Positions 1 through 62,678 of a stretch of DNA of 64,000 nucleotides are shown in pieces (positions within the stretch are counted from its first letter, which is position 1; every line of letters begins with the position of its first letter). A program made the position numbers and the translations under genes. The stretch covers positions 1,736,001-1,800,000 of the forward strand of contig CP160629.1 in the NCBI GenBank assembly GCA_038993745.2, in the 5' to 3' direction. Below the pieces are notes generated by a model. That model made no database searches and had not been told where the DNA came from. It saw nothing but the letters and a program-made list of their open reading frames with translations. The DNA comes from Aliivibrio fischeri (GTDB lineage Bacteria; Pseudomonadota; Gammaproteobacteria; Enterobacterales; Vibrionaceae).

Positions 1-540
1 CTTTTGATACCATTGCGCTAAAAACAATTGAGATTCTAAATGGTTCTGTAATGCCAATTTAGTAATGGTTTTCGTTCCTAACTCTATGTCTTTTTCACAA
101 CCAGTACCTGTGAGATACAATTTACCTAGAGTTAAAGAAGCACTGATATCACCTTGGCTATCACCAAGTCTAGCCGCCCAGTAATCCGACTTTTCTGTTG
201 CTTCAGGATCGTCGTAATTATCATCATATAAACGCACTAGAGCGTAAAAGGCTTGTTGGCTATTTTGTTCAGCCGCTTTTAAGTACCATTTAATCGCACC
301 ATTTTGGTCAACCAATTCAAGATCAGCCCCTAAAGCTAATTGGGCTGTTATATTTCCATTTTTTGCTCGTTGAATTTTGTCCTTTTTATCCGCTTCATCA
401 TCAAACGGAACCACTGGAGACTTATGACTACTTTGTTGATTTTGTCGAATCGTTAACTTTTTTTTCTTTTCTGTAGTTTGAAAGTGTAGAACCATCAAAA
501 TAAGGCACACAACACTACAAAAAAATAAGAACCAATACAT
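1..540 (-). CDS. Sel1-repeat protein, membrane-anchored (3' end outside window)
   Basis: Reading leftward from an ATG at 540 gives an open frame that runs off the left edge. The N-terminus is one hydrophobic segment (about residues 2-19), followed by a Lys-rich stretch and then Sel1/TPR-like repeats, with phrases such as AIKWYLKAAEQNSQQAFYAL and LGKLYLTGTGCEKDIELGTK. Sel1 repeats form alpha-helical protein-binding scaffolds; the partner is unknown. A second Sel1 protein lies at 4149-4844. No convincing Shine-Dalgarno is seen before the ATG. The family call is good; the function is not known. Confidence 0.75.
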   Translation of the reverse strand, partial: MYWFLFFCSVVCLILMVLHFQTTEKKKKLTIRQNQQSSHKSPVVPFDDEADKKDKIQRAKNGNITAQLALGADLELVDQNGAIKWYLKAAEQNSQQAFYALVRLYDDNYDDPEATEKSDYWAARLGDSQGDISASLTLGKLYLTGTGCEKDIELGTKTITKLALQNHLESQLFLAQWYQK

Positions 541-778
541 ATCTATATCATCGAAAAGGAATACGTTTTTTTGAGGCCTTATTCTAATGATTTTTATTCA
601 GAATGAGAACGAATACATGATAGCAAAACAGTAATTAGGGCTATTTTTTATAAAAAAATGCGACAAAAATAAATAAAAAAAACATATTCAGTTTTTATTC
701 AATATTCCTAGCTTTGTGACTGGTTTTTTTCAATAAGTTAGCTAAGGTATAATTAAAATTATTATTTATTTGGTTAGT
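541..778. other. Divergent intergenic region
   Basis: AT-rich spacer between the leftward Sel1 gene and the rightward ATPase gene. It should hold both promoters, but I see no clear operator, RNA or small ORF. Confidence 0.4.
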
Positions 779-32429: not shown

Positions 32430-32516
32430 TGGTGCCCCGGGCCGGACTTGAACCGGCACAGCGCGAACGCCGAGGGATTTTAAATCCCTTGTGTCTACCA
32501 ATTCCACCACCAGGGC
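32430..32516 (-). tRNA. tRNA-Leu (anticodon TAA), copy 2
   Basis: 87 bases with encoded CCA, a long variable arm and the anticodon stem-loop GGGATTTAAAATCCC. The acceptor arms GCCCTGG and CCGGGGC pair. It is the last gene of the second Cys-Gly-Leu unit. Confidence 0.96.
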
Positions 32517-32593
32517 ACGCAATTTCTTGCGATGCCGATTACTGAAAAGTAAAACACCATCTGTAATTACCGCTATTGCAGTAATTTTTAATT

Positions 32594-32669
32594 TGGAGCG
32601 ACACACGAGGTTCGAACTCGTGACCTCAACCTTGGCAAGGTTGCGCTCTACCAGCTGAGCTAGTGTCGC
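32594..32669 (-). tRNA. tRNA-Gly (anticodon GCC), copy 2
   Basis: 76 bases with encoded CCA; the anticodon arm is AACCTTGCCAAGGTT, and the acceptor GCGACAC pairs with GTGTCGC. Confidence 0.96.
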
Positions 32670-32683
32670 ATAGCATAAAGAAA

Positions 32684-32757
32684 TGGAGGCGCCTCCCGGA
32701 ATCGAACCGAGGTCCACGGATTTGCAATCCGCTGCATAGCCACTCTGCCAAGGCGCC
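32684..32757 (-). tRNA. tRNA-Cys (anticodon GCA), copy 2
   Basis: 74 bases with encoded CCA; the anticodon arm is CGGATTGCAAATCCG, and the acceptor GGCGCC pairs with GGCGCC. Confidence 0.96.
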
Positions 32758-32797
32758 ATTCTTTATATTAAGTTGCTTATCCAAGTAAGCTAATAGA

Positions 32798-32884
32798 TGG
32801 TGCCCCGGGCCGGACTTGAACCGGCACAGCGCGAACGCCGAGGGATTTTAAATCCCTTGTGTCTACCAATTCCACCACCAGGGC
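32798..32884 (-). tRNA. tRNA-Leu (anticodon TAA), copy 1
   Basis: Same sequence as the copy at 32430, exactly 368 bases away. Confidence 0.96.
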
Positions 32885-32961
32885 ACGCAATTTCTTGCGA
32901 TGCCGATTACCGAAAAGTAAAACACCATCTGTAATTATCGCTATTGCAATAATTTTTAATT

Positions 32962-33037
32962 TGGAGCGACACACGAGGTTCGAACTCGTGACCTCAACCT
33001 TGGCAAGGTTGCGCTCTACCAGCTGAGCTAGTGTCGC
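32962..33037 (-). tRNA. tRNA-Gly (anticodon GCC), copy 1
   Basis: Same sequence as the copy at 32594, 368 bases away. Confidence 0.96.
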
Positions 33038-33051
33038 ATTGCATAAAGAAA

Positions 33052-33125
33052 TGGAGGCGCCTCCCGGAATCGAACCGAGGTCCACGGATTTGCAATCCGC
33101 TGCATAGCCACTCTGCCAAGGCGCC
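33052..33125 (-). tRNA. tRNA-Cys (anticodon GCA), copy 1
   Basis: Same sequence as the copy at 32684, 368 bases away. It is the first gene of the six-tRNA operon. Confidence 0.96.
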
Positions 33126-49853: not shown

Positions 49854-49937
<84 letters not shown>

Positions 49938-50019
49938 TTATTCAGTTAATTGATACGTCAGTTAACACACTTGATTACTCCTTTGGGAAAAGAGTTAGTT
50001 AAGTATAAAAATACCCGCT

Positions 50020-50103
<84 letters not shown>

Positions 50104-50185
50104 TTATTCAGTTAATTGATACGTCAGTTAACACACTTGATTGCTCCTTTGGGAAAAGAGTTAATTAAGTATAAAAATACCCGCT

Positions 50186-50269
<84 letters not shown>

Positions 50270-50351
50270 TTATTCAGTTAATTGATACGTCAGTTAACAC
50301 ACTTGATTGCTCCTTTGGGAAAAGAGTTAATTAAGTATAAAAATACCCGCT

Positions 50352-50435
<84 letters not shown>

Positions 50436-50517
50436 TTATTCAGTTAATTGATACGTCAGTTAACACACTTGATTATTCCTTTGGGAAAAGAGTTAATTAA
50501 GTATAAAAATACCCGCT

Positions 50518-50601
<84 letters not shown>

Positions 50602-50683
50602 TTATTCAGTTAATTGATTCATCAGTTAACACACTTGATTACTCCTTTGGGAAAAGAGTTAATTAAGTATAAAAATACCCGCT

Positions 50684-50766
<83 letters not shown>

Positions 50767-50969: not shown

Positions 50970-51158
50970 ATGCACATTGCACAAGTTCAAAAGCAGCAAG
51001 AACCGTCACAATGGAAAACATGTAGCTTATGTAATAAAGAGGCTTTTTGTCATCCTTCTACTAGCGTCACAATGGCTTGGATAAAAGCAGGTTTAGGTCA
51101 ACAAAAATGCACGTGGCGCTGTGAGACATGCCAGCCAAGCGCTAGATTATTAAACTAA
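50970..51158 (+). CDS. Small Cys-rich, zinc-ribbon-like protein under SOS control
   Basis: 62 residues with six cysteines: KTCSLCNKEAFC (18, 21, 27) and KCTWRCETC (47, 51, 54), a spacing that suggests one zinc site of the ribbon kind. GAGG stands seven bases before the ATG. The LexA box just upstream means it is probably induced by DNA damage. I do not recognise the family. The basic, Trp-containing sequence and small size would suit a protein that binds nucleic acid or another protein, but this is a guess. Confidence 0.7.
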   Translation: MHIAQVQKQQEPSQWKTCSLCNKEAFCHPSTSVTMAWIKAGLGQQKCTWRCETCQPSARLLN

Positions 51159-51372
51159 ACTTACATGATTTAATGCCAAATAATGTTAGTATCATTATAT
51201 TAGAGATCCTTGCTCAACTAGGATTGATTATATTTATAAGGACTTGATAACCTAATGAAAGTAATAAGCTTTAATATAAACTACATATCAAAAACCAATA
51301 CTTTCAATTAGTTAAAAAGGAAAACAAACAATATTGCCACAAGAATGACTACACCTTAAACTTCTTATACAA

Positions 51373-51400
51373 AAAAGCCCCTCAAATTAGGGGCTTTTTT
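51373..51400. terminator. Strong bidirectional terminator
   Basis: The stem AAAAGCCCCT/AGGGGCTTTT with a six-base loop, T run to the right and A run to the left. It insulates the SOS gene from the STAND gene. Confidence 0.83.
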
Positions 51401-51492
51401 ATTTTATAACGTTATGTTTTTAATGAAGCAATAAAATTATAGTAAGACTGCATAAAAACACACTCAAAATACCAATAGCTATCAGCTGTAAT

Positions 51493-51523
51493 TAGGGCTT
51501 ATTATGTAGGTTCATAAGCCCTA
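51493..51523 (-). terminator. Inverted repeat after the STAND gene
   Basis: TAGGGCTTA/TAAGCCCTA, nine perfect pairs, 14 bases after the stop codon at 51537. It is a probable terminator or mRNA-end hairpin. Confidence 0.6.
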
Positions 51524-51536
51524 TTTTATTTCTCTA

Positions 51537-54254
51537 CTAGTTTAAAATCTCAATATCTTCAGCAGTGAAGCCCTTATCATTTTTACCTGTTGTAAAACAG
51601 ACTTCTATATTTTCTTCAACATTACGGTTGTCTAATATTGTTTTTGGCATCAAAGAGCTTCGGCTGAAAAAGTATCTAATGCTTTGAGAGTCTTCAGCAA
51701 AACCATATGATATTCCGCAATGACCTGGTACTAAGTTAACAATCTTACCATTGACTCTAGAACCAACTTCTTTAGTAAGAAGAGAATTAGATTTTATTAG
51801 AAATTGTTGTAACTTATATGAATTTTCTGTTTTATCTATATCTAATAAAATATTCAAGTGCTGCTTCAGCTCTCTTAAACAATCGATATTAAATTTTTCT
51901 ATATGCGTATCAATAATGAATAAAATATTATTACTTACTGTATTGTCATCACTAAATTTGTAATACGATATGCTATCTTTGTAGGTTTTACATAATTTAT
52001 CAATAATCGACTTATCGTAGTCATCTTCATCTAATGAACGTCCTATTATATCTACAGCTTTAGATAAGTTATTTTTTGCTTCAGTCCGATCTTTATGGCT
52101 TATATATTGTTCAGATGCTCTTCTTCGGCAATCAGATGATTGGTCGTATAAACTGATTCTGAATTTCTTATGTTTTGATATTTTTTTGTCAGATAGTATC
52201 TCATCATAAATTTTATTCGCTCCCTCATAGTTTCCCATGACTTTTAAAATAAATGCCAACTGGCTTTTACAAGGAATTGAATCTGGCTCAATTTTCAAAG
52301 CATACTGCAAATGTTCAATAGCATCTTCATACTGCTCTTCACTATTCAGAAATTTAGCATATGAATATCGAGCAATCATCGATTGTTCATTGTATTCAAT
52401 GGCTGTATCGTACTCAGCTTGAGCTAACCATGGTTGGTCTTTTTGCAAAATATAACCATGTACACGGTAGCATTCGGAAAAATCAGGCATTAGAGCTTTG
52501 GCTTGTCTTACCTTTTCAATAGCATCTTCTATTTTTCTATTTGCATATAAAGTAAGTGCAGCACTTAAATAAGTAGCACAGATTTTTTGATCATTTGTAT
52601 CCCATACAATATTTTTTGGATCAAACTCATAACTATGTTTTGATACGCCTTGCTCAGCTATGATGGTTCTTAAATTAGCTCGTCTTTCCTTAACAAGGTT
52701 ATATATATCTTTCGTTATCGCGTTAATACTCTTTAAATAGCTTTCAGCTACGTTAGTTAGAATAAACTTTTGCTCATCAAATTTATCATCATCTGACGAC
52801 ATCAACATACTCGAATTTCGTAGTCTGTGAATAACTTCTTCTAGGGCAATATTGTGCATATCATCTAAAAAGAATCTCAACTCAACTAATGTTAAAGGCT
52901 TTCCGATACAAGCAACTACTAGTATTATTTTCTTTTCATCAACAGTTAACTTTTCATATAAGTTTTCAAAACAAAAACTTAAAGCATCTTTAAAGTTATC
53001 ACTATTTTTATTTATGAGTTTTTTAGGATCAGCACCATAAGCATATGAACGAACATACCATCTAATTAACAATGGGTTATTAAATAGCCTCAAGCAAAGA
53101 TCTTCTAGTTGTGCGTTATTCTTCTTAACTAAATCATTTACGTTCAATATTTTAGACATATTTCTAATTAGATTAATAGAAGATCGCTTGTCTAACTTAT
53201 CTAATTTATAACGAAACTCTAATTCACCTAAAGCCATACGAGTGGTTATTAATACTTTAGAACCATCGGGAATATTAGCTAAAAAATGTCGAATTTTACT
53301 TGTAGAAATAGTTTCTAAGTTATCAATACAAAGTAAAACCTTAAACTCCCTCATATAAGATAAAATTTCATCTAGCATATCATCCATACTTTCAGTTTCA
53401 GTTTCATTCGCTAAAAAGTTACTGACGTGCTGAAATAACCCCATGCTGTCCGTAATGGCGTTATTTATTTGCCTTGCTCCATTTACTGTAAGTTCATTTG
53501 CTTTCAGTGTAACCCAAGTTATGATTTCAAACCTTGGCGAGTCATTTGAGTACTCTTCACATAAATCAAGCATGTCATACAAACATCGTTGAGATAATGC
53601 TGTTTTACCAATTCCTCCTTCTCCAACAATTGTGATAACTCTAGTATCAGAATGTAATAATTTATTGATAGAGTCTCTATCACTCACTCGCCCTAAAAAT
53701 CCAGTATCATCGAATTCAACCATAGGTAAATTATGAAAAATTTGTTTCTTTTTTTCATCCCATGAATTTGGTGTACCAACAGTTGAAAGGTATGCTCGGT
53801 TATCTAGGTTATTTAAAACATTTTTAATTTGTCTAAATGTATTTGGAGGTGATTTTTTAAGTAATTCTGATGAAAACTGTCGTAATTCGAAAAAGTCTGT
53901 AGATTCTAGTGGCCTACTATGGCAAACCCGATTACGACAGGGAGATAGTAAATCAAGGTGTTCGCATATGAATACGATTATACTTTCACTTAATATTGCC
54001 TGATGTTTTTTTAGTTTATGCAGTATTTTTTGAGTATCTGAAAAATCAATATATTGGAGTAAATCTATTAACTCTGGTGAACTATTTTTTTCTTGTTCAT
54101 GATCTCTGATATAGCGTTCAGATACTTTAACTTGTATATCTTGTGGGAGGCTTTCTACTTGCTCCGTTATCCTAAGTATAAAGTCACGTAAGTCTTGCTC
54201 AATAGAAGATATTAAACCAAAACATGATAGCCTGACGGTTGTTGTGTCACTCAC
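51537..54254 (-). CDS. HEPN - STAND (NB-ARC-like) NTPase - TPR - cold-shock-like domain protein; putative anti-phage defence
   Basis: 905 residues. Residues 1-150: helical, with SSIEQDLRDFILRI like Swt1-type HEPN domains and RNRVCH (107-112), the RN-x3-H catalytic motif of HEPN ribonucleases. Residues 180-400: a STAND NTPase with Walker A GEGGIGKTAL (211-220), Walker B VLLCIDNLE (306-314), the sensor-like SKVLITTR (332-339) and NNPLLIRW (392-399). A helical and winged-helix-like part follows. Residues 560-690: TPR repeats. Residues 834-905: an OB-like cold-shock-type domain (KIVNLVPG..., YGFAED, YFFSRSSL, GFTAEDIEIL). STAND proteins with nuclease ends are known anti-phage sensors that kill or stall the cell. 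The start is GTG with AAGGA in front; an ATG one base upstream is out of frame. Own promoter; beside a prophage. The target is unknown. Confidence 0.82.
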   Translation of the reverse strand: MSDTTTVRLSCFGLISSIEQDLRDFILRITEQVESLPQDIQVKVSERYIRDHEQEKNSSPELIDLLQYIDFSDTQKILHKLKKHQAILSESIIVFICEHLDLLSPCRNRVCHSRPLESTDFFELRQFSSELLKKSPPNTFRQIKNVLNNLDNRAYLSTVGTPNSWDEKKKQIFHNLPMVEFDDTGFLGRVSDRDSINKLLHSDTRVITIVGEGGIGKTALSQRCLYDMLDLCEEYSNDSPRFEIITWVTLKANELTVNGARQINNAITDSMGLFQHVSNFLANETETESMDDMLDEILSYMREFKVLLCIDNLETISTSKIRHFLANIPDGSKVLITTRMALGELEFRYKLDKLDKRSSINLIRNMSKILNVNDLVKKNNAQLEDLCLRLFNNPLLIRWYVRSYAYGADPKKLINKNSDNFKDALSFCFENLYEKLTVDEKKIILVVACIGKPLTLVELRFFLDDMHNIALEEVIHRLRNSSMLMSSDDDKFDEQKFILTNVAESYLKSINAITKDIYNLVKERRANLRTIIAEQGVSKHSYEFDPKNIVWDTNDQKICATYLSAALTLYANRKIEDAIEKVRQAKALMPDFSECYRVHGYILQKDQPWLAQAEYDTAIEYNEQSMIARYSYAKFLNSEEQYEDAIEHLQYALKIEPDSIPCKSQLAFILKVMGNYEGANKIYDEILSDKKISKHKKFRISLYDQSSDCRRRASEQYISHKDRTEAKNNLSKAVDIIGRSLDEDDYDKSIIDKLCKTYKDSISYYKFSDDNTVSNNILFIIDTHIEKFNIDCLRELKQHLNILLDIDKTENSYKLQQFLIKSNSLLTKEVGSRVNGKIVNLVPGHCGISYGFAEDSQSIRYFFSRSSLMPKTILDNRNVEENIEVCFTTGKNDKGFTAEDIEILN

Positions 54255-54286
54255 ATTTATTCCTTAATTTATCATAGTTAAGAATT

Positions 54287-54292
54287 ATTATA
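54287..54292 (-). promoter_or_regulatory. Predicted -10 of the STAND gene
   Basis: TATAAT on the minus strand, 33 bases before the GTG start codon. The -35 position (TTAATG, 17-base spacer) is weak. Confidence 0.4.
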
Positions 54293-54436
54293 ACCACAAG
54301 ATATCATACCATTAAGAATCATTCGCATTCCATATAAATATTATTATTTTAGGCGCGAGAATTTTTTATCATCGGCTGAATCTCCCTTCCCTCTTGTATA
54401 CAGACAAATTCATTTATCACACTTCAAAACTCAACA

Positions 54437-54459
54437 CCGAGGAGGGTCACACTCCTCGG
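54437..54459 (-). terminator. Hairpin at the end of the prophage late operon
   Basis: A perfect stem CCGAGGAG/CTCCTCGG, 20 bases after the tape-measure stop. The following T tract is weak. It separates the STAND gene from phage transcription. Confidence 0.65.
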
Positions 54460-54478: not shown

Positions 54479-56365
54479 TTAATAACTCATACTCATATTA
54501 CCCACGTTCAAGCTTAAATCTGTGCCCTTCTCGCCTTTTGCTTTATCGATAGTGACTGGCTTATCTGATTTGATAGTAAGTGCCACTTCGGCTTGGCTTT
54601 TCACTGTTTGGTTGGTTAATGGAGTTGCTTTAGACATTGGGATTATGTTGCCTGATAAGCTTTGTTTTGGCTGATTATGATATGACGTTGCAATGGTTTG
54701 GTGTTGGCTTTCTGTGGTTGTGATACCTAGCTTCGTATTCTTATCCTTCATCTTACTCAGTTTGGTACTGAGCTTATCCACCTCTTTTCCGGCATCTTCC
54801 ACTGAGGTTTTCCAACCATCAGGAATGAGTGCATCAGGCAGCATGTTTATCATGGATTTAATGCCATCCCATACCCAACCAATGGCTTGATTTACCGCTT
54901 TTAATATCACATCAAAACCAATGAACTTATCAATCAAGTAAGTAATAGCGACAGCTGCGGCACCAATGGCCGCCACCATTAACCCTATAGGGTTGGCCAT
55001 GATGACCGCGTTTAATGCAATCAATGCCACTTTAAAAATGGCGACCGTCGCAATGATCCCTTTGAAGTGTTGAGAGGTGAACAAAATAATATTGCCTAAG
55101 AACTTAAAGCTCTCATAAAGGCCATTAACCGTTTTAATGATTTTCTCAATTAAGTCCGTGCGCCATTTGGCGTTCTTAAACTTAGTCGAGAACACGGTAA
55201 ATGCTTCGGTAATTCTCTGCATCACAGGCGCCAGAGCGGCGAACTTGATAGAGCGAAGACTCTCTTGCACTTTTTGCAAAGCATCGTTATACGCTTCGGC
55301 CTTGGCAGCATCATCAGCTTTCGCTCCACCGCCAAGTGCATTGAACTCTTTTCGAGCTGCACCTAATCCTTCGGTCCCTTCACGAAGCATGATTAACATT
55401 TTACGACCATCTTGACCAAAGGCCGCATCCGCAAACGCCATTTGCTCTTGAGTGGTTTTTAGTTTTGAAAATGACACCAGTAATTTGTCGTATGCATCTT
55501 GAGTATCTTCGGCACTTTGCAACTCTCGATACAACGGGCTTTTCCCATTTTTCAAAAATGAGCCCATTGCACCTCGCCCTGTTTCTTGCAGCACACCAAG
55601 GCGTTTTGTAAATCGCACCATGGAAGCGCTCAAGGTATCAGAGCTCACCCCTGCGTGCTCTGCTTGTGATTGCATGGCTTGCAACTCTGAAATCGGTAGA
55701 TTCAAGGTGTTTGAAGTTTTGGCCAACTTATCCATTTCAGAGGCAGTGCTGTTTATCTCATTAAATAGTCCGCCCATGCTCAAGCCACCAAGTAGCGCCG
55801 CCCCTTTGCCAACCGCTGCGGTGCGAAGGTTTGGCAACTTGATGGCTTTACTGAGTTTTTGGATCGGTGCCATAGCGGTTTTCAATCGCTTGTATTTTTT
55901 GCTCACCTCATCCACACGCTTTGCATGACGCATTTGGCTTTTCGATAAACGCTCAAACTCGTTATCCAGTTTATTAACGTTCACCCCTGCTTTTTGCATC
56001 TGCTTGCTTGTGCTTTTAAGTGTCTCTTCGTATTTATTTTGTTTCGCAGAGAGCGTGGCCACTTTCTCGGTTTGTTTTGCCAACCGATTCGTCAATGCGG
56101 CACTTGGCTCTTTTGTGCTCGCCATTTGTGCTTGGAGTTTATTTAATTTCTCAGTGGCTTCTTCACTTTCAAGCGCGTTCTTATCCAACTCTTTTTGAAT
56201 TTTTTGATAAGAGGCGATCATCGCCATGGCGCTTGAGTCGTCTTTTTGTGCCTCTTGAATGCTTTTTATTTTCTTAGCGTAATGATCTGAATCGCTGCTC
56301 ATCTCTTTTAATGGCTTGGTGGTTTTGTTCACCATGTCCATGACGACTGACAAATTCATTTTCAT
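54479..56365 (-). CDS. Phage tail tape-measure protein (P2 gpT-like, TP901 type)
   Basis: About 628 residues. A long N-terminal coiled coil (QAQMASTKEPSAALTNRLAK, KLDNEFERLSKSQ) is followed by the TP901-type region (TASEMDKLAKTSNTLNLPIS, QAMQSQAEHAGVSSDTLS), then hydrophobic helices (about 440-490). It sets tail length and helps DNA delivery. It is short for a P2-like phage, so the tail should be short. The ATG at 56365 has AAGGGA in front; a TTG at 56371 is the longer option. Last gene of the operon. Confidence 0.85.
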   Translation of the reverse strand: MKMNLSVVMDMVNKTTKPLKEMSSDSDHYAKKIKSIQEAQKDDSSAMAMIASYQKIQKELDKNALESEEATEKLNKLQAQMASTKEPSAALTNRLAKQTEKVATLSAKQNKYEETLKSTSKQMQKAGVNVNKLDNEFERLSKSQMRHAKRVDEVSKKYKRLKTAMAPIQKLSKAIKLPNLRTAAVGKGAALLGGLSMGGLFNEINSTASEMDKLAKTSNTLNLPISELQAMQSQAEHAGVSSDTLSASMVRFTKRLGVLQETGRGAMGSFLKNGKSPLYRELQSAEDTQDAYDKLLVSFSKLKTTQEQMAFADAAFGQDGRKMLIMLREGTEGLGAARKEFNALGGGAKADDAAKAEAYNDALQKVQESLRSIKFAALAPVMQRITEAFTVFSTKFKNAKWRTDLIEKIIKTVNGLYESFKFLGNIILFTSQHFKGIIATVAIFKVALIALNAVIMANPIGLMVAAIGAAAVAITYLIDKFIGFDVILKAVNQAIGWVWDGIKSMINMLPDALIPDGWKTSVEDAGKEVDKLSTKLSKMKDKNTKLGITTTESQHQTIATSYHNQPKQSLSGNIIPMSKATPLTNQTVKSQAEVALTIKSDKPVTIDKAKGEKGTDLSLNVGNMSMSY

Positions 56366-56400
56366 AAACAATCCCTTTCTTTGGGTATAAAAAAAGAGAG

Positions 56401-56565
56401 CTAAGGGCTCTCTTTCTCGGTTCGAACTCGCGCCTCTTCTCGAAATAAAAGTAAATCATCAAGGCTGAGTTCGTCGATTTCACTGGGTTGCCAATGAAAC
56501 ACTATAGCGAGATCGGCATAATAGGTTTCTACTCGCTCAATTAGTGTTTCGTATCCACGAAAAAA
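56401..56565 (-). CDS. GpE' extension, reached by -1 frameshift from the E gene
   Basis: A frame without its own start codon reads FFRGYETLIERVETYYADLA then IVFHWQPSEIDELSLDDLLL and FREEARVRTEKESP. The part ADLAIVFHWQPSE is typical of the P2 GpE family. The frame is reached from the upstream E gene at T TTT TTC (56559-56565). The E+E' product is a tail assembly chaperone that wraps the tape measure. Confidence 0.8.
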   Translation of the reverse strand, partial: FFRGYETLIERVETYYADLAIVFHWQPSEIDELSLDDLLLFREEARVRTEKESP

Positions 56566-56810
56566 GAGGCGATTTCCGTCATGATGGGTGCAAAGTTTTC
56601 ACTTTCCATATTCAAGATGTCACGCTCATTAAGTTTAGAAATACGAGGAAGTAACACAGTGGCCGCATCAAAGTGCATTTCACACACTTGAACCAAATTC
56701 AAACCACGTAAATCCCCAGCCGTTGGTTTGCGAAGCTCTAACTCTGCCACTTCTTTTCCATCCACTTCCATGGGTATGGCTAATTTCACTTTGAATAGTT
56801 GTTTATTCAT
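56541..56810 (-). CDS. Tail assembly chaperone E (P2 gpE / Mu gp41 type)
   Basis: 89 residues: MNKQLFKVKLAIPMEVDGKE, then LELRKPTAGDLRGLNL, as in Phage_TAC_7 proteins (P2 E, Mu gp41). The frame ends SFFVDTKH soon after the slippery site. It overlaps the upstream GpM-like gene by eight bases. E and E+E' together are thought to act as tape-measure chaperones in a fixed ratio. Confidence 0.83.
   Translation of the reverse strand: MNKQLFKVKLAIPMEVDGKEVAELELRKPTAGDLRGLNLVQVCEMHFDAATVLLPRISKLNERDILNMESENFAPIMTEIASFFVDTKH
56559..56565 (-). promoter_or_regulatory. Predicted -1 ribosomal frameshift site (T TTT TTC)
   Basis: The heptamer on the minus strand follows X XXY YYZ with codons TCT TTT TTC in the zero frame. 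A shift by -1 enters the GpE' frame at once. In P2 the E/E' site is of the same kind. Confidence 0.78.
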
Positions 56811-57507
56811 AACCGAACTCTTCTCTTAATTCTTTCAATTTGATTTTACGACCGCCTTTTTTAGGGTCGATTTTCATGACCATTTCAAACAAAGCCAACG
56901 CCTCTTTGTTATTGCCTGCTTCCAACAATAAATCACCGGCAAGACGAAACATTTTCACTTTCAATGGGGCATTGGTGGCTAATCGCCCTTCAATCAAATC
57001 GGTGACAGCATCACGTAAAAACTGAGCATTAAATGATTGCTTGGTTTTATGTGCATCATGCGAGTATTTAAACACCACATCTAAAAACGCTGTTTGGCCA
57101 TTTGAGTTCCAACTTAACGGCGTGGTGAGTCCTTTAAATATCGCCTGTTTAAATGCATCATGAACCGATAGCAATAAACCGCAATCCACTTGCCATTGAT
57201 AAAACCACCAAACCACATCCAATCCATCAAGACTCTCATGTGACTTAAGCAGCTTTCTCACCAATGGGGTGTATTTTTTAACAAGCTCTTTTTTGTATGG
57301 TATTTTCTCTTGTGAGCCAGCTAAGGTTCGTGAGTATTTCAAATCGGTTTTTAAGATGTGTTGCACTTCATCCCATGATTTATGCTCAAGTACATCACGA
57401 GCACCAGTTGCAGCCATCACGGGAATATTAAGCGCACTCTCTTGTTCAATTTTCATCGCTTGCGCTTTTCTTACTTTGGCTTGTCGCTTTAATAATAACG
57501 TTAACAT
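56803..57507 (-). CDS. P2 GpM-like terminase small subunit, in the tail operon
   Basis: 234 residues, mainly helical. The pattern KKELVKKYTPLVRKLLKSHE, then DVVWWFYQWQVDCGLLLSVH and, at the end, LAGDLLLEAGNNKEALALFE with DPKKGGRKIKLKEL follows P2 gpM (LLPFWLPWVNGVLELGKG, LKITGLFL-type, then ALAHLQRATQLD and GVKKEI). In P2, M lies between N and L; here N and L are adjacent, and this gene lies between the tail tube and E. The similarity was judged from memory; a tail-specific role cannot be excluded. Confidence 0.65.
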   Translation of the reverse strand: MLTLLLKRQAKVRKAQAMKIEQESALNIPVMAATGARDVLEHKSWDEVQHILKTDLKYSRTLAGSQEKIPYKKELVKKYTPLVRKLLKSHESLDGLDVVWWFYQWQVDCGLLLSVHDAFKQAIFKGLTTPLSWNSNGQTAFLDVVFKYSHDAHKTKQSFNAQFLRDAVTDLIEGRLATNAPLKVKMFRLAGDLLLEAGNNKEALALFEMVMKIDPKKGGRKIKLKELREEFGYE

Positions 57508-57523
57508 TCCAACCCCTTTTCAC

Positions 57524-57889
57524 TTATTGTGGGATTAATTCGGTACCCAAAAACAGCACTTCAAGTTGGCCATCTTTGATATTAAGCTCTAACGATTCAC
57601 TCACCCACGCATCCATCAAGGTGTAGCTTTTTCCACTATTGGTATTGAGTGTGATGTTTTCACCTGTAAAATTTTTGATGTTGGTTTCATCAGTGGTCTT
57701 AGCATGCGCGATGGTTGCCTTGATAAAAGGCGCACCTTCAAACTCTTCACTAAATCCAAGAACGCCTGAATCGCCCATGACCGCTTCACGTTTTACGCCA
57801 CCAAAGTTAATGGTTGCTCCTTCTTTAGTCGGTAAGCGTCCCAATGAGCCGGCATCTAAAAAACCACGACTGGTTATTGTTGTACTCAT
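57524..57889 (-). CDS. Phage tail tube protein (Mu gpM-type)
   Basis: 121 residues, beta-rich. FLDAGSLGRLPTKEGATINF and SKSYTLMDAWVSESLELNIK-like strands match Mu-type tube proteins rather than P2 FII (which is about 170). It polymerises inside the sheath. It lies directly after the sheath gene (21-base gap). Confidence 0.83.
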   Translation of the reverse strand: MSTTITSRGFLDAGSLGRLPTKEGATINFGGVKREAVMGDSGVLGFSEEFEGAPFIKATIAHAKTTDETNIKNFTGENITLNTNSGKSYTLMDAWVSESLELNIKDGQLEVLFLGTELIPQ

Positions 57890-57910
57890 AAATGACTCCC
57901 AATCATTCTG

Positions 57911-59044
57911 TTACTTTCTAAATTGAATTTTACCTGCCGTAATGATCAAGCCATTGACGAACTGCGGACTGTCTAGGTAGTTAATGCGTGTTTTGTTGTT
58001 TTCATCTAACTCAACAATCAAGGTTTTTTTATACCCTTCAAAATCTTGAACTATCCCTTGATACTCCAAACTTTTATACAAAGTGAGTAATTCCCCTTTG
58101 ATAATGCTTGGGGTCACAATCGCTTGTCCTGGAGCAAAGCTCGTTCCCTCTTTGGCTAATTTATGGCGACCAAATTTGCTTTGAATGAGTGAGCGTTGCT
58201 TCTCACGAAAATACATGGCGGTAGCCGGTGTCATCACATCCAGATAACTGTCATCCGCCGCCCCTGCTGCATTTTCCGTATAAGCGGTAACTGGTCGCTC
58301 AACTTGCACTTCTTTGGTTGAGGTAACGGTGTAGGTTCCCATCCCTTCATGCAGCAATAAATTGCGCTCATTCCAATCAAACTCACTGGAGGCAATGGAA
58401 TACACCCCATTCATTTTTAGGGTTTGAAGTGGTCGGCATGGATCATTTGCCAATGAAGGCGCGACTTGACCTGCCCATGCTGCCACCGCTTCTGCATCAG
58501 ATAATGGCTTGTTTGATGAGTCCGCTAACTCATTAATCGACATGAAGCTTATCAATGGGCAATTGGACATTGCACCATAAGTAATAAGCTCGGCGTGCGT
58601 GCCTTTTTTTGGAAGATAAGCAATGCCCGGGATCATTTCTAATGCCTTATAGCGCTCATCTAAAAACGTTCCTAAATCACGCACGGTGGTTTCATCATTG
58701 AGTGAGCAAAGAATATGATGATATTGCGTATCCCCAAGAGCTGCCAACGCGCTTGCTGTATCGGCAGCTTCAACACTCACCGCATACACTGGCATGCTTT
58801 CATCTTGCTTTCGAAAATACTTCAGCATGCTTGTGATATCAGATTCACCAAACTGCTCACGTGCAGAGTCCTCATCCATACACAACACTACGGTGTTGGG
58901 CGACACCGCCGCACCAGTAATAGCATTACCAATCACAAGCAGTTTTTGCAGCTCTTCTGCACTATTAGCAAGACTGTTATCAATTTCAATGTACACACCC
59001 GGAACGCGAGCATTGTTCGGCACTTCTGAAAAACTGATACTCAT
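57911..59044 (-). CDS. Phage tail sheath protein (Mu gpL-type)
   Basis: 377 residues. The N-terminus (NNARVPGVYIEIDNSLANSA) and the C-terminal domain (FEGYKKTLIVELDENNKTRI, NGLIITAGKIQFRK) fit the contractile sheath of Mu. Its ATG overlaps the TGA of the DUF2635 gene (ATGA), so translation is coupled. Confidence 0.88.
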   Translation of the reverse strand: MSISFSEVPNNARVPGVYIEIDNSLANSAEELQKLLVIGNAITGAAVSPNTVVLCMDEDSAREQFGESDITSMLKYFRKQDESMPVYAVSVEAADTASALAALGDTQYHHILCSLNDETTVRDLGTFLDERYKALEMIPGIAYLPKKGTHAELITYGAMSNCPLISFMSINELADSSNKPLSDAEAVAAWAGQVAPSLANDPCRPLQTLKMNGVYSIASSEFDWNERNLLLHEGMGTYTVTSTKEVQVERPVTAYTENAAGAADDSYLDVMTPATAMYFREKQRSLIQSKFGRHKLAKEGTSFAPGQAIVTPSIIKGELLTLYKSLEYQGIVQDFEGYKKTLIVELDENNKTRINYLDSPQFVNGLIITAGKIQFRK

Positions 59045-59211
59045 GATGTTTGCTCCTTCTTCGGCTCAATAATAATGGCTGAGCCCTCTTTAATTCGGCG
59101 TAGCCAATAGGTGTTTCGAGGTTTCGTTTCACCGACCATTTTTAACGGTACTCGGGTTAATGGATCACGTACTAGCAATCCCTTTTTCGGTTTAATTTTG
59201 ATAGTGCGCAT
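59041..59211 (-). CDS. DUF2635 phage protein (Mu gp38-like)
   Basis: 56 residues (MRTIKIKPKKGLLVRDPLTR and onward, ending EPKKEQTS). It is small, basic and lies right before the sheath gene, as gp38 does in Mu-like phages. Its stop overlaps the sheath ATG, and its ATG touches the stop of the S-like gene. Function unknown. Confidence 0.8.
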   Translation of the reverse strand: MRTIKIKPKKGLLVRDPLTRVPLKMVGETKPRNTYWLRRIKEGSAIIIEPKKEQTS

Positions 59212-59733
59212 TTAACTCTCCACGCCTGCTGTAAATTGCTCTGCCACCATGGCAAGCAACTCTCGCTCAAGGGCAGGTGTCCAACCAATAAACGTTCGTT
59301 TTGGCATTTGGTAAAACTGTTTAACTTTGGTTCCGCCTTCCCATCGACTGGTTCGAGAGTTGTAATACCCTTTCGCTCTTGTCGTAAATGAGAGCGTTCT
59401 CCCCTCATTGTGATCACGTGCCATGTTGCCAACCACACCAGCAAGCCCCACTTCAAAGCCCTTATCATTCACTTGGGTTTTCAATGCTCGGCTAAATCCC
59501 ATCAACATGTTTTTGTTGTCTTTGGCTTTATGGGTTTTGCTATCTAATGTGATTTTTCTTCGAGCTCGTTTTTGATAACTTCGCCCTTCAATGTCTCGTT
59601 GCAGCCGTATTTGAGAGCGAAAGTATTGTCGTGAGCGATTGGCTAAACGTCGATTTAAATCAAACTGCTCAGCGTCGCTTAATAGCAAGCCATCAATGAT
59701 GCTCGTGAGCTGCTCGGGACTACTTAACTGCAT
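59212..59733 (-). CDS. Tail completion protein S (phage virion morphogenesis family)
   Basis: 173 residues. SDAEQFDLNRRLANRSRQYF and the later WTPALERELLAMVAEQF match the P2 gpS / Mu gpG-like virion morphogenesis family. It helps join tail and head. It follows the R-like gene with a short overlap (59724-59733), as in P2. Confidence 0.82.
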   Translation of the reverse strand: MQLSSPEQLTSIIDGLLLSDAEQFDLNRRLANRSRQYFRSQIRLQRDIEGRSYQKRARRKITLDSKTHKAKDNKNMLMGFSRALKTQVNDKGFEVGLAGVVGNMARDHNEGRTLSFTTRAKGYYNSRTSRWEGGTKVKQFYQMPKRTFIGWTPALERELLAMVAEQFTAGVES

Positions 59734-60200
59734 GATGGAAAGTCATGTTCATGGCCACCAATAAATTCTAATGGCGGTAATTCATCTTCACTTAATGTGC
59801 GAGTGAAATTGCTGACACACTCATACCGAGTTTCATTTTGTAGCCAATTGCCTTGTGCGTTTTCATTCAGCGAGTAGCTTTCCTGAATATCCACTTTGAG
59901 TTTGATGTCGCATTTGCCGTTATCCAGTAACTCAGCGGCAAAGGATGGCGGTGCCAAGCCTTTTTCTTCTCGTTGGATATCAAATTTGTTTAACCATGAC
60001 ACCAGATGCATCATCAATATCTGTGGCTCGATATCGACGCCCACCATATTGACGTTCACGGTGTAAGTAATATCAAAGCCATCCACGAGTTGGCCTTGCG
60101 TACAAACTAACTCCCCATCTTCTGCCCATACATCAAAACTATGAGCATTAAGCACATGATGAGAAAATAACTCCGTAATACTTTGCAACGCTTTCATCAC
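59724..60200 (-). CDS. Tail completion protein R (P2 gpR-like)
   Basis: 158 residues. MKALQSITELFSHHVLNAHS opens it, and LVSWLNKFDIQREEKGLAPP, then DIKLKVDIQESYSL fit P2 GpR (WL, then LxLxLxExV). Overlaps the L-like gene by four bases (ATGA). In P2, lysis genes lie between L and R; here they are missing. Confidence 0.8.
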   Translation of the reverse strand: MMKALQSITELFSHHVLNAHSFDVWAEDGELVCTQGQLVDGFDITYTVNVNMVGVDIEPQILMMHLVSWLNKFDIQREEKGLAPPSFAAELLDNGKCDIKLKVDIQESYSLNENAQGNWLQNETRYECVSNFTRTLSEDELPPLEFIGGHEHDFPSCS

Positions 60201-60646
60201 ACCACCTCAAAACGATAGGTTTCTTCACCATTAAGTAATAAATCCATGGCACGGCGATATTGCACTAAACAATTATCCGCTTTGGCTTGAATGGCTTCTT
60301 GTCGCTCTGCCGCTTCTTTGGTGGCGTTCATACTCAATTGATTTTCAACTAAGAAGTTCGCCGTCATCGCAAACACCGCTTGTTTATACAAGATGGCTCC
60401 CGTATCAGTTTCACCAAAGCGCTCCACTGACAACGCATCCAAGTTATCAAACTCTTCCATGGTATCGAGTAGCTCTCGATGAATAGTGACTCTGGCCACC
60501 GTGGCATGATGTAAAATTCCCGCCTCTGTTTCATTACTCAAAAAATGAAACACAAGCTGAAACTCTGAAATTTTAAGCTCGGGGTATTGCTCGGTTGCAG
60601 GCAATACCGCGTCATACACTTCATTTTTATTGCCAACAAATTCCAT
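60197..60646 (-). CDS. Head completion protein L (P2 gpL-like)
   Basis: 149 residues. ILYKQAVFAMTANFLVENQL and NCLVQYRRAMDLLLNGEETY are the conserved GpL parts. It stabilises the filled head. It directly follows the capsid gene, without the M gene that P2 has here. Confidence 0.82.
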   Translation of the reverse strand: MEFVGNKNEVYDAVLPATEQYPELKISEFQLVFHFLSNETEAGILHHATVARVTIHRELLDTMEEFDNLDALSVERFGETDTGAILYKQAVFAMTANFLVENQLSMNATKEAAERQEAIQAKADNCLVQYRRAMDLLLNGEETYRFEVV

Positions 60647-60748
60647 ATTCGCCTCTTAGGTGCAGGCTTCACACTGACTAATAACAACCCATCAATAGGT
60701 TGATAAAGCAGTGATCGCCTGCATGGGTTGGTGTTCAGTTGTACGCGG

Positions 60749-61801
60749 TTATACCCACGCGCCATCAATCCACAGTTTCACGTTGTCAAACTCAAGCGCG
60801 GCCGCTTTTGGTAATTGTTCAACCACATAAGCCATGTTCATTGATTCAAAGTTTTCAATTTGATCAAGACGGTCGTTCTTCTTCGCCAATGAGCGACGAA
60901 TGGAATCTTTTTGAATGTACAAAGATAGGTTTTTAAAGCTAGTAACCAAGATCCCCGTTGGTGGGAACGATGGTGGACAAAACGCCGCTAAACCGCCATA
61001 CGTGCCAATCACTTGCATGTCTTCAATGTGTGCTTTCTCTGTTGGAGTATTACCATGCGCGGCATAGAATTTGGCTTTATCATAAGAAAGTAAATCAGAG
61101 CCAACCAACGCCACTAAATCCGAGGCATTGGCACACGCATCATGCAATAAACCTTTCACGTTCATTACGGCTAAATCAAGGTTAATAAAGTCCCCTTTGC
61201 CTGCTGTTTCATCGCCCTCACCCAAACGAATTTCACCCGTTGTTTTGCCTTCAACAAGCATGGCATCGGCGTTATTATCACGAATGGCTTGGAACCATCC
61301 TTTACACACATCTTCGCCATTTGGGTTCGTCTCAGGATCCGTATTCGCTTCACAAGATGTGCCATAGAAACCGATGGTCACTTTGTTCATATCAATCTGC
61401 TCACGAGTTTGAGAATTGATAAGTTTGTTGAAATTCTTCAAATGAGCAAAGGCATCCAATTGATCGTAACGAATGTGTGAATCAAAGTTCACTTGCTCAC
61501 ACAGGTACGGCATCGGTTCCATGTTATAAACGGCTTTGGTTTTACGCTCATTGCCTGTTTTGGTGTTGGTACGGCTGGCAATCATGCCGGTTACCCCAAG
61601 TCCAATTGCTTCACCTTTTTGGTTTGCCACAGGCACAATATTAATCTTGCCAAGAAACCAGTTACTCTCACGAATTTGAGCAACAATCTTTTGTGTGGCA
61701 TTAGGGGTCACACTGAATTTTTCAGTGACATCCTCAACCCCATTTTGTTTTGCGGCGGCTTTTTTATAGCCCTCTATCGCCAGTTTTGTTTTTTCTTGCA
61801 T
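60749..61801 (-). CDS. Major capsid protein N (P2 gpN-like)
   Basis: 350 residues, as in P2 (357). The N-terminus (FSVTPNATQKIVAQIRESNW), LGVTGMIASRTNT and the C-terminal EQLPKAAALEFDNVKLW fit the P2 GpN capsid. It is cut by the O protease during assembly in P2. Confidence 0.9.
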   Translation of the reverse strand: MQEKTKLAIEGYKKAAAKQNGVEDVTEKFSVTPNATQKIVAQIRESNWFLGKINIVPVANQKGEAIGLGVTGMIASRTNTKTGNERKTKAVYNMEPMPYLCEQVNFDSHIRYDQLDAFAHLKNFNKLINSQTREQIDMNKVTIGFYGTSCEANTDPETNPNGEDVCKGWFQAIRDNNADAMLVEGKTTGEIRLGEGDETAGKGDFINLDLAVMNVKGLLHDACANASDLVALVGSDLLSYDKAKFYAAHGNTPTEKAHIEDMQVIGTYGGLAAFCPPSFPPTGILVTSFKNLSLYIQKDSIRRSLAKKNDRLDQIENFESMNMAYVVEQLPKAAALEFDNVKLWIDGAWV

Positions 61802-61859
61802 AATAAAATCCAGTTAAATAAATAGATTAAGAAGAAGGAAAAGCGTGATAAGCCAATGC

Positions 61860-62678
61860 TTATAAATACATTTCTTCGCTGTCTTCCCCTGCCAATTGTC
61901 GAGGGGTTTCGTCCGTGATGGAGCTCAGTTTTGTCACCACATCATCAAGTTTGCTTGATAGGGCTTCGACCTGAGTGGCTAACTCGGTTTGCTCTTCTTG
62001 CTCGGGCTCAGTCTCTTGAGGAAGGGTTTCTTTAATCGTTGCAGTTAAGCTTGTCACTTGACCTGTTAACGCTGTTATCTGCGCGGTTTGTGCTTGTAAT
62101 AGCGCTTTTAGTTCTTCATTCATGTCATCGTTCTCTTCTTCTGGTGGGTCGGATGGCTCATCATGCGAGCGAAATAATTGAATAAGTCGAGATAACAATT
62201 TTTTGTCATCTTGAGTGGTTGGCTCTTCGGCCTCGATGAGCTCTTTTCCTACGGTAGCCCCTGAGCTCAAATAGACCTTGTCCTTATTTTTCTCTTTCGA
62301 GTTGGCTGATAAATGCATTTCAGTGGTGCCAAGCGATGCGGGCTCATCCGTTAATGCCAAGCCGGTTAAATAACTTTTTCCCGTATTGGCAAAATTAGGC
62401 GTAATTTCACAAGAGGTATGCAGAAGTTGACCTTTCTCAACCGTGCTCAATAACAATGAATTGGGTTTTAAAACACCCCACAATTCATCCCCTCTTTTTT
62501 CCACCGATAGCACCGAGCCAAACTTTTCACCCCATGCCCAATGCTCTTCATTGATGCGTGCGTTATAGCGTTTTGGGTCATACAGCTCGACAATATCGTC
62601 AATCACCTTTTGCTCGATAAACCGACCATCGACGGTTTCACCTGCGGTTAAAATACAAATGGGCTCTGACTGAAACAT
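61860..62678 (-). CDS. Capsid scaffold/protease O (P2 gpO-like)
   Basis: 272 residues. The serine-protease part holds YNARINEEHWAWGEKFGSVL, the later TSCEITPNFANTGKSYLTGL and ALTDEPASLGTTEM; a coiled-coil scaffold (about residues 200-250) ends the protein. It cleaves N, L and itself in P2. AGGAGA before the ATG. Divergent from P, as in P2. Confidence 0.88.
   Translation of the reverse strand: MFQSEPICILTAGETVDGRFIEQKVIDDIVELYDPKRYNARINEEHWAWGEKFGSVLSVEKRGDELWGVLKPNSLLLSTVEKGQLLHTSCEITPNFANTGKSYLTGLALTDEPASLGTTEMHLSANSKEKNKDKVYLSSGATVGKELIEAEEPTTQDDKKLLSRLIQLFRSHDEPSDPPEEENDDMNEELKALLQAQTAQITALTGQVTSLTATIKETLPQETEPEQEEQTELATQVEALSSKLDDVVTKLSSITDETPRQLAGEDSEEMYL

What the first reader, a model, noticed from the sequence alone, without database searches (positions are those of the whole stretch)
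51537..54254. A 905-residue HEPN-STAND-TPR-cold-shock protein: candidate new anti-phage defence system
Seen: RNRVCH at residues 107-112 in a helical N-terminus, GEGGIGKTAL, VLLCIDNLE and SKVLITTR of a STAND NTPase, TPR repeats, and a C-terminal segment with the cold-shock order G-x-V, GFAED, FF-S-S-L, GFTAEDI. Known: STAND proteins with HEPN or nuclease ends (Avs and NLR-like systems) sense phage proteins and kill or stall the host. Inference: the HEPN end cuts RNA once a phage molecule is sensed; the C-terminal OB-like domain could bind RNA or DNA, which is not usual for STAND sensors. It has its own promoter and terminator and sits beside a prophage and tRNA genes, a typical place for defence cargo.
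Basis: partly seen in the sequence, partly recalled or inferred. Interest (0 to 1): 0.85.

Follow-up and report, generated by a model that had tools for sequence, protein, structure and literature searches.

The report
Prophage-carried HEPN-STAND-TPR-cold-shock defence gene
A virus lying dormant in a bacterial chromosome carries one large gene that looks like an alarm-triggered, RNA-cutting immune protein, a design predicted in 2013 for which I found no laboratory test, in a slot where related viruses carry other genes, some of them restriction systems.

Summary
The protein is real: 905 residues, minus strand, 51537-54254, with all quoted motifs. It belongs to a sparse but widespread family (30 near full-length members, this one included). 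NB-ARC STAND and TPR are confirmed. The C-terminus is a cold-shock domain: Pfam CSD in 19 of 23 members, PDB profile E 2.5e-15, five predicted strands. The N-terminus keeps RNxxxH in 34 of 34 proteins and has weak HEPN matches, but its model found no significant fold match: HEPN is likely, not proven. The gene is not beside a prophage but inside a P2-like one: a 29-bp att repeat at 51252-51280 and 35.5 kb away, empty sites in three relatives. It is a swapped cassette (51403-54436) between tape measure and attL; that slot in relatives holds, among others, a PvuII restriction system. Defence is the best reading. The architecture is not new: Anantharaman 2013 listed HEPN + STAND + TPR + S1/cold-shock proteins; I found no experimental test.

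The parts
51537..54254 (-). single gene, 905 aa HEPN-like/STAND(NB-ARC)/TPR/cold-shock protein, GTG start, stop at 51537-51539
   Evidence: 30-row tree
53775..54254 (-). residues 1-160: all-helical N-terminal domain, HEPN-like (Swt1/Abi2 type), presumed RNase effector
   Evidence: HEPN_Swt1 in 15 of 24 and Abi_2 in 6 of 24 members at E 1, best 6.8e-4 and 6.2e-4; AF2 pLDDT 86.8, pTM 0.81; no significant PDB fold match
53919..53936 (-). RNRVCH, residues 107-112, RNxxxH catalytic-type motif at the end of the long helix 90-111
   Evidence: RN...H in 34 of 34 proteins; R107 N108 H112 invariant in 24 rows
53235..53669 (-). NB-ARC STAND NTPase core, residues 196-340 (Walker A 211-218, IDNLET 310-315, TTR 337-339)
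   Evidence: Pfam NB-ARC 4e-10; invariants
51768..52595 (-). helical repeats, residues about 554-829; TPR recognisable at about 611-689
   Evidence: TPR_19 2.1e-7; helix pairs in AF2 model, pLDDT about 90-97 over most of it
51540..51758 (-). C-terminal cold-shock (OB-fold) domain, residues 833-905
   Evidence: Pfam CSD in 19 of 23 family members, best 1.9e-14, not in the window copy alone; PDB cold-shock domains 2.5e-15 with family profile; leave-one-out profile finds the window copy at 2.5e-9; strands 833-844, 847-855, 860-864, 883-892, 895-903
51403..54436 (.). exchangeable cargo cassette: replaced by other genes in the related prophage of G395 (tape measure 97% identical)
51371..51400 (.). 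palindromic terminator-like hairpin in phage-end sequence downstream of the gene
   Evidence: shared flank
51252..51280 (+). left copy of the 29-bp prophage attachment repeat; right copy 35,457 bp further on (G000:C1:1822709-1822737), at the 5' end of an exonuclease-III-like gene (named from its start sequence)
54479..56371 (-). prophage tail tape measure gene, neighbour of the cassette
   Evidence: phrog_8125 8e-138
56541..62678 (-). prophage tail and head genes (tail protein, small terminase, tube, sheath, terminator, neck, capsid, scaffold)
   Evidence: PHROGs

Best explanation
A single-gene, prophage-borne immune protein that protects the lysogen and its resident prophage from other phages. 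Inferred mechanism: at rest the NB-ARC STAND switch is closed. The TPR superhelix together with the C-terminal cold-shock domain senses a product of infection (most simply single-stranded phage RNA or DNA, or a nucleoprotein). ATP-dependent oligomerisation then pairs the N-terminal HEPN domains, whose RNxxxH motif cuts host or phage RNA, giving growth arrest or abortive infection. Shown here: the domain layout (HEPN only as likely), motif conservation, the exchangeable cassette inside a P2-like prophage, and defence genes beside some family members. Inferred: ligand, oligomerisation, RNase activity, and the defence outcome.
For: STAND/TPR. CSD. RN...H in 34 of 34, and E19, D21, R107, N108, H112 invariant across 24 divergent proteins. 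Weak HEPN_Swt1/Abi_2 matches in 15 and 6 of 24; independent 2013 classification of the described architecture as 'mostly active' HEPN. Gene inside a prophage: 29-bp att repeat, empty sites in 3 of 5 relatives fetched. Cassette swapped for other genes in a prophage with a 97% identical tape measure. Downstream of the tape measure one relative has a PvuII-type restriction enzyme (8.7e-56) plus methylase, another a C5 methylase plus HATPase (proteins picked by eye as promising). Family members beside GajA+GajB, PglZ, REase_I: at least 6 of 98 flanking ORFs match PADLOC models at 1e-100 or better, against 0 of 72 host ORFs, whose best is 2e-54. No shared partner gene (3 homologous pairs between loci among 98 ORFs, two of them from one pair of RM loci). 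Patchy: own genome only, of 394 in the order (1e-20) and 369 in the class (1e-60).
Against: The N-terminal model had no PDB match at E 0.001 or better among 99 reported, and none named HEPN in the 50 rows shown. hhalign to Abi_2 relatives put the RNxxxH motifs in register but at E 0.069, probability 0.8%; the family profile found nothing significant in a locus holding a known HEPN_Swt1 protein (best E 0.13). No HEPN match passes its cut-off, and the whole-protein scan lists none at E 1. No PADLOC model matches the protein. Of 20 neighbours scanned singly, 14 gave no PADLOC hit (at 1e-10, 59 at 1e-5), and two of the six hits (SAVED_CHAT 7.5e-34, dGTPase 7.1e-64) are near the control's best (2e-54). 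No functional data of any kind.
Confidence: 0.55

Rival explanations
1. Same defence role, but the TPR repeats sense a phage protein, as in Avs sensors (recalled), and the cold-shock domain belongs to the effector side: it holds or presents RNA for the HEPN nuclease.
For: In TIR-STAND-TPR proteins the TPRs are proposed to sense infection (PMC9122126 passages). The CSD is small and divergent, seems doubled in L009, L013 and L014 and is S1-like in L008, as might be expected of an RNA-holding accessory. Cold-shock domains were listed among RNA-binding domains of effectors in other NTP-dependent conflict systems (PMC7159879 passages).
Against: The CSD sits at the far end of the repeat superhelix, away from the HEPN end, where sensor domains usually lie (general knowledge), and is kept in 29 of 30 members by loose motif.
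Confidence: 0.25
2. The N-terminal helical domain is not a nuclease (non-HEPN, or an inactive HEPN used as adaptor), and the protein acts by binding: it recruits or blocks RNA through the cold-shock domain, for example as a translational switch or a superinfection-exclusion factor.
For: No significant fold match for the N-terminal model and no HEPN match over Pfam cut-off.
Against: R, N and H of RNxxxH are invariant in 34 of 34 proteins, with identities to the window protein down to 21%, which fits catalysis; the 2013 survey judged the class mostly active.
Confidence: 0.15
3. Housekeeping or regulatory STAND protein with no defence role, caught in a prophage by chance.
For: STAND ATPases include transcription regulators (general knowledge); some relatives sit among metabolic genes (L004, ABC transporters).
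Against: Own genome only in 394 and 369 related genomes; lies in an exchangeable prophage slot with restriction systems in some relatives; no DNA-binding helix-turn-helix domain among the Pfam matches.
Confidence: 0.05

Closest known systems
HEPN (Swt1-like) + STAND-ATPase + TPR + S1/cold-shock OB proteins of Anantharaman et al. 2013 (PMC3710099; abstract part and passages seen; examples given there Npun_F6454, MED222_16016, Desac_1927, gi 229028907)
   Same: Same domain order as described: N-terminal HEPN, STAND NTPase, TPR, C-terminal OB (S1 or cold-shock like)
   Different: Their sequences were not fetched here, so membership is by described architecture; the passages I saw give no prophage context and no test. 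That MED222 is a Vibrio is recalled
phrog_24039 (PHROGs v4, function unknown)
   Same: Covers residues 5-756 at 7.2e-124: a (pro)phage protein family is already in the library
   Different: Unnamed; profile of 780 positions and no match beyond residue 756, so the CSD is not covered
Avs/AVAST and other STAND defence proteins (TIR-, SIR2- and Mrr-STAND in P4 satellites, PMC9122126 passages)
   Same: N-terminal effector, central STAND NTPase, C-terminal repeats, carried by phage-related elements
   Different: Effector is HEPN-like, and a cold-shock domain ends the repeats; no PADLOC model matches
HEPN fused to DUF499 STAND/ORC-type ATPases of BREX-related systems (PMC12839542 passages)
   Same: N-terminal HEPN on a STAND-type ATPase, proposed as last-resort suicide effector
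   Different: BrxC-like ATPase in an operon with methylase and helicase; here NB-ARC, TPR, CSD and no partner
CoCoNuT type IV restriction systems (PMC11090510 passages)
   Same: Combine cold-shock-like OB folds, HEPN nucleases and an NTPase, predicted to target RNA
   Different: McrB-type GTPase operons with coiled coils; here one protein with NB-ARC STAND and TPR
Tha, prophage HEPN system of Staphylococcus (PMC11087260, abstract start in a search listing only)
   Same: Prophage-encoded HEPN defence activated by incoming phage
   Different: Activated by tail proteins; no STAND or CSD is mentioned in what I saw

Membership tests
STAND NTPase, NB-ARC clade | P-loop G.GG.GK[TS], Walker B, sensor TTR/TSR, NB-ARC profile over cut-off | tested here: met
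   Pfam NB-ARC 39.8 bits, cut-off 23.5; Walker A in 33 of 34 proteins, the 34th ending before it; exact [ILV]DNLET in 30 of 34
TPR proteins | tandem helix pairs with TPR profile | tested here: met
   TPR_19 31.6 bits, cut-off 25; helix pairs in model
Cold-shock domain (PF00313) | about 70-residue five-stranded OB barrel with GFGFI and F-F-H type motifs (recalled) | tested here: met
   Family: 19 of 23 members, PDB CSD 2.5e-15. Window copy alone: no Pfam hit, but 2.5e-9 with the family profile built without it and five strands in the model
HEPN superfamily, Swt1/Abi2 class | helical bundle with RxxxxH (often RNxxxH) at the end of a core helix | tested here: met
   RNRVCH at end of helix 90-111 in models; RN...H in 34 of 34
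HEPN superfamily, Swt1/Abi2 class | significant profile or fold similarity to known HEPN | tested here: inconclusive
   HEPN_Swt1 in 15 of 24 members, best 6.8e-4, window 0.029; Abi_2 in 6 of 24, window 6.2e-4; below cut-off for the window. Whole protein: none at E 1. hhalign to Abi_2 E 0.069; locus with an HEPN_Swt1 protein best 0.13; Foldseek PDB none at 0.001
HEPN superfamily, Swt1/Abi2 class | RNase activity, usually as a dimer | not testable with these tools
   needs protein
HEPN-STAND-TPR-OB class of Anantharaman 2013 | domain order HEPN, STAND, TPR, S1/cold-shock | tested here: met
   (HEPN with the reservation above); their listed sequences were not compared directly
Avs/AVAST and other catalogued defence families | match to a known defence-family model | tested here: not met
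   0 of 5027 PADLOC models at E 1
Phage defence system | protects cells from phage | not testable with these tools
   needs plaque assays
Prophage variable-cargo slot with defence genes | different gene(s) at one fixed place of otherwise similar prophages, including known defence systems | tested here: met
   exact swap against G395; varied genes downstream of 19 of 20 related tape measures; PvuII system in one; att borders of the other prophages were not mapped
CoCoNuT | McrB-like GTPase and CnuC/McrC partner | tested here: not met
   NB-ARC instead; no shared partner among up to two ORFs on each side of 26 relatives

The most novel reading that the evidence does not exclude
A prokaryotic NLR-like receptor that reads foreign nucleic acid directly with a cold-shock domain and answers with collateral RNA cleavage: in effect a guide-free, one-protein counterpart of Cas13 carried by a prophage against rival phages.
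Probability: 0.25. Interest if true: 0.75.

Novelty: new member of a known kind. Interest (0 to 1): 0.45.

Why it matters
STAND phage sensors characterised so far, as I recall, mostly read phage proteins. A family that keeps a cold-shock domain at the far end of its repeats in Pseudomonadota, Bacillota, Bacteroidota and Myxococcota (S1-like in a planctomycete) makes nucleic-acid sensing by a bacterial NLR-like protein directly testable with one gene. The slot between tape measure and attL of this prophage group is also a practical place to mine for further phage defence genes.

Tried and rejected
Rejected: reading the gene as host cargo next to tRNA genes (att repeat and empty sites put it inside the prophage). 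Rejected: the last tRNA-Tyr as attachment site (its one-base-shorter copy suggested it, but no tRNA 3' end recurs beyond the array in the 76 kb searched; the 29-bp repeat does). Rejected: a partner gene. Rejected as evidence: PADLOC hits to mad3, mad8, AriA and ATPase-Toprim near relatives, because host control ORFs give the same. Led nowhere: phage-record tblastn (no match), PADLOC on the protein, PDB sequence search of the whole protein (TPR matches and two other weak ones) and of the N-terminus (nothing relevant), first viral-contig scan, HEPN_Swt1 family search (1 of 119 genomes), Abi_2 profile comparison (16 rows, of which L116 is probably a wrong ORF; L099 gave none, L114 and L115 were left out), HEPN_Swt1 locus test, Foldseek of the N-terminus. 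Never run: Foldseek of the full-length model (queue), pdb_via (not installed). (A3) was a badly built alignment and was not used; one search failed on a file name. Rows dropped: truncated or broken relatives L015, L022, L029, L031, L032 were left out of A2, A4, A5 and A6 (all but L029 are in the motif tally); plasmid relatives L002-L004 out of A2, A4, A5; L008 (S1-like C-terminus) out of A4; L052 (partial match) out of all of them; tape-measure hit G401:C36 not fetched. In some searches the genome search scored only a few candidates per genome (two in the rows shown), so absences there are not exhaustive.
Full report
The observation. The 905-residue ORF is on the minus strand at 51537-54254 with a GTG start. 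Pfam finds NB-ARC (4e-10, over cut-off) and TPR_19 (2.1e-7, over cut-off). PADLOC has no model for it at E 1. PHROGs has an unnamed phage family, phrog_24039, that covers residues 5-756 at 7.2e-124.

The family. A tblastn of plasmids gave 22 records, four of them covering 75% or more of the protein at 26-30% identity (Planococcus, Rhizobium). The phage records (50,697) gave no match at 1e-5. A profile scan of genome contigs gave 28 loci from Pseudomonadota, Bacillota, Bacteroidota, Myxococcota and Planctomycetota, plus one metagenomic contig labelled Heimdallarchaeota. Four viral contigs were added, one of them (L052) a partial match. Twenty-four near full-length proteins, this one included, were aligned: E19, D21, R107, N108, H112 and P115 are invariant, as are the Walker A glycines and lysine and DNLET, at 21-45% identity to the window protein. 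In a 34-protein tally RN...H is in 34, Walker A in 33 (the other ends before it) and exact [ILV]DNLET in 30; two of the four without it end before it, L022 and L049 lack the exact string. The 30-row tree joins the window protein with Aliivibrio sifiae (L005), Pseudomonas cyclaminis (L010) and a viral contig (L049), 100/100 support. The family is sparse: only the own genome among 394 of the order (E 1e-20, single protein) and 369 of the class (E 1e-60, profile), with few candidates scored per genome.

The C-terminus is a cold-shock domain. Pfam CSD matches 19 of 23 family members, best 1.9e-14, although not the window copy on its own. The family profile finds solved cold-shock domains at 2.5e-15. 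Built without the window row it finds the window copy at 2.5e-9, and without its relatives L005 and L010 too at 1.6e-6. The AlphaFold2 model (24 rows, mean pLDDT 85.4, pTM 0.64) puts five strands at 833-903. L009, L013 and L014 appear to carry two copies, L008 ends in an S1-like domain (by eye), and in L050 (774 aa) none was detected in any frame.

The N-terminus is probably HEPN, not certainly. For: the invariant RNxxxH at the end of helix 90-111 of an all-helical domain, HEPN_Swt1 matches in 15 of 24 and Abi_2 in 6 of 24 members (best 6.8e-4 and, for the window itself, 6.2e-4; weak, and below cut-off for the window), and the 2013 classification. Against: the whole-protein scan lists no HEPN family at E 1; the well-predicted N-terminal model (pLDDT 86.8, pTM 0.81) gave 99 Foldseek matches in the PDB, none at E 0.001 or better, and none named HEPN among the 50 shown; hhalign to 16 Abi_2-type rows aligned the motifs in register but at E 0.069, probability 0.8%; in a locus with an HEPN_Swt1 protein the family profile's best score was E 0.13.

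The place. A 29-bp exact direct repeat lies at 51252-51280 and 35,457 bp further on, at the 5' end of an exonuclease-III-like gene. In G394, G403 and G399 the two outer flanks meet with a 26-28 bp overlap, the empty site; G395 holds a related prophage and G398 was unclear (3 of 5 fetched). An integrase-like ORF lies near the right end at window numbering 83031-84128 (named from its start sequence, not from a profile). The genes beside the cassette are tape measure, tail, small terminase, tube, sheath, neck, tail terminator, capsid and scaffold, in the order of the complete Vibrio phage 1F53_PE003 (its sheath is 72.8% identical), whose record notes name P2, HP1 and Mu proteins. So the gene is inside a P2-like prophage, at its attL end.

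A cargo slot. Against the prophage of G395, whose tape measure is 97% identical, homology stops at 51402 and resumes at 54437: a 3,034-bp unit is exchanged. Nineteen of 20 non-own tape-measure matches were read downstream (18 stretches of up to 6.8 kb and L054, ORFs of 75 aa or more). The genes there vary; by eye a similar methylase-like ORF of about 350 aa recurs in five (L078, L079, L080, L082, L095), and none of the ORFs resembles this protein in length or start. Where these stretches pass into host DNA was not mapped. Of eight proteins that I picked from five of these phages, one matches the PvuII restriction enzyme (8.7e-56) beside a DNA methylase, one a C5 methylase (5.6e-65) beside a HATPase, one a KAP NTPase, one an IrrE-like peptidase, and two nothing. 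Phage 1F53_PE003 has an unknown 458-aa gene right after its tape measure. This resembles the P2/P4 and Vibrionales hotspots of Rousset 2022 (PMC9122126, passages), but at a different place from the cI-integrase slot they describe for Vibrionaceae.

Neighbours of relatives. Of 98 ORFs, up to two on each side of 26 relatives, at least six match PADLOC models at 1e-100 or better (GajA, GajB, PglZ, BrxL, two type I REase, which shows 25 of 180 families). Single scans place GajA/GajB at L010, PglZ at L017 and one REase at L025; L003 is annotated as type I RM. BrxL was not resolved to a locus. The host control, 72 chromosomal ORFs of this one genome, has no match better than 2e-54. Fourteen of 20 neighbours scanned singly had no hit. 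The weak mad3, mad8, AriA and Toprim matches occur in both sets and were discarded. PHROGs integrase profiles match 3 of the 98 ORFs. Among the 98 ORFs only three homologous pairs link different loci, so the system looks like one gene. The cassette is AT-rich, 31% GC against 37% for the host stretch and 43% for the structural genes.

Mechanism. Best reading: a STAND switch whose TPR and cold-shock end senses infection and whose N-terminal HEPN pair, brought together by oligomerisation, cuts RNA. Domains, conservation and location are shown; trigger, oligomerisation, cleavage and protection are inferred. HEPN nucleases as dimers, and loss of defence on HEPN mutation, are reported for a CBS-HEPN system (PMC13092281, passages).

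Prior art. Anantharaman 2013 (PMC3710099, passages) lists, under Swt1-like HEPN, fusions to 'STAND-ATPase, TPR, S1 ... mostly active', and describes HEPN-STAND proteins 'in some cases' with C-terminal cold-shock-like OB folds. The architecture is therefore in print. HEPN with inactive STAND modules (PMC8195603, passages) and with DUF499 ATPases (PMC12839542, passages) are other published combinations. I found no experimental test in searches, which cover open-licence PMC papers only, and mostly judged from listings; supplementary tables and figure labels were not seen, so a test there (for example among the HEPN or NTPase systems of PMC13092281) cannot be excluded.

Verdict. A real, well-conserved, probably defensive single-gene system; a new member of a class predicted in 2013 for which I found no test. 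Interest 0.45.

Noticed in passing
outside the window, L035:856-1437 and L035:1452-2324 (window numbering 84856-86324), between the integrase-like ORF and attR: Two adjacent ORFs match the front and back parts of Pfam Thiol_cytolysin (9.6e-43; 8.1e-54, plus its C-terminal domain 1.1e-31): a cholesterol-dependent-cytolysin-like gene carried in two pieces at the other end of the same prophage. Described only, searched apart.
   Followed up: partly
49854-50765: Six tandem tRNA-Tyr genes in about 166-bp repeat units; the last copy is one base shorter.
   Followed up: partly
32430-33125: tRNA Leu-Gly-Cys block duplicated in tandem.
   Followed up: no
50970-51158: Small 62-aa ORF with CxxC pairs between the tRNA array and attL, on the host side of the repeat.
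   Followed up: no
residues 175-189 (53688-53732): The linker NLPxxxFDDTGFxGR before the STAND core is among the most conserved stretches, yet residues 164-175 and 178-181 have pLDDT under 50. Perhaps a nucleotide lid or latch; unexplained.
   Followed up: no
L054 (G395): Related prophage of the same genus shows two copies of the left att flank (matched at 1-657 and 857-1012 of the turned locus, with a right-end piece between): perhaps two integration events at one site.
   Followed up: no
L029:10001-10342: Photobacterium pectinilyticum contig holds a 73% identical fragment (residues 102-215) with an early stop in frame, near a contig end: a relic or cut copy. Described only.
   Followed up: no
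L003:10579-14332 and L025:12470-16278: In two alphaproteobacterial relatives the gene is followed by homologous pairs: an SprT-like metalloprotease (so annotated in L003) and type I HsdR.
   Followed up: partly
L078 (G407) 422-3076: PvuII-type restriction enzyme and a DNA methylase downstream of an 81% identical tape measure, i.e. in the same prophage slot.
   Followed up: yes
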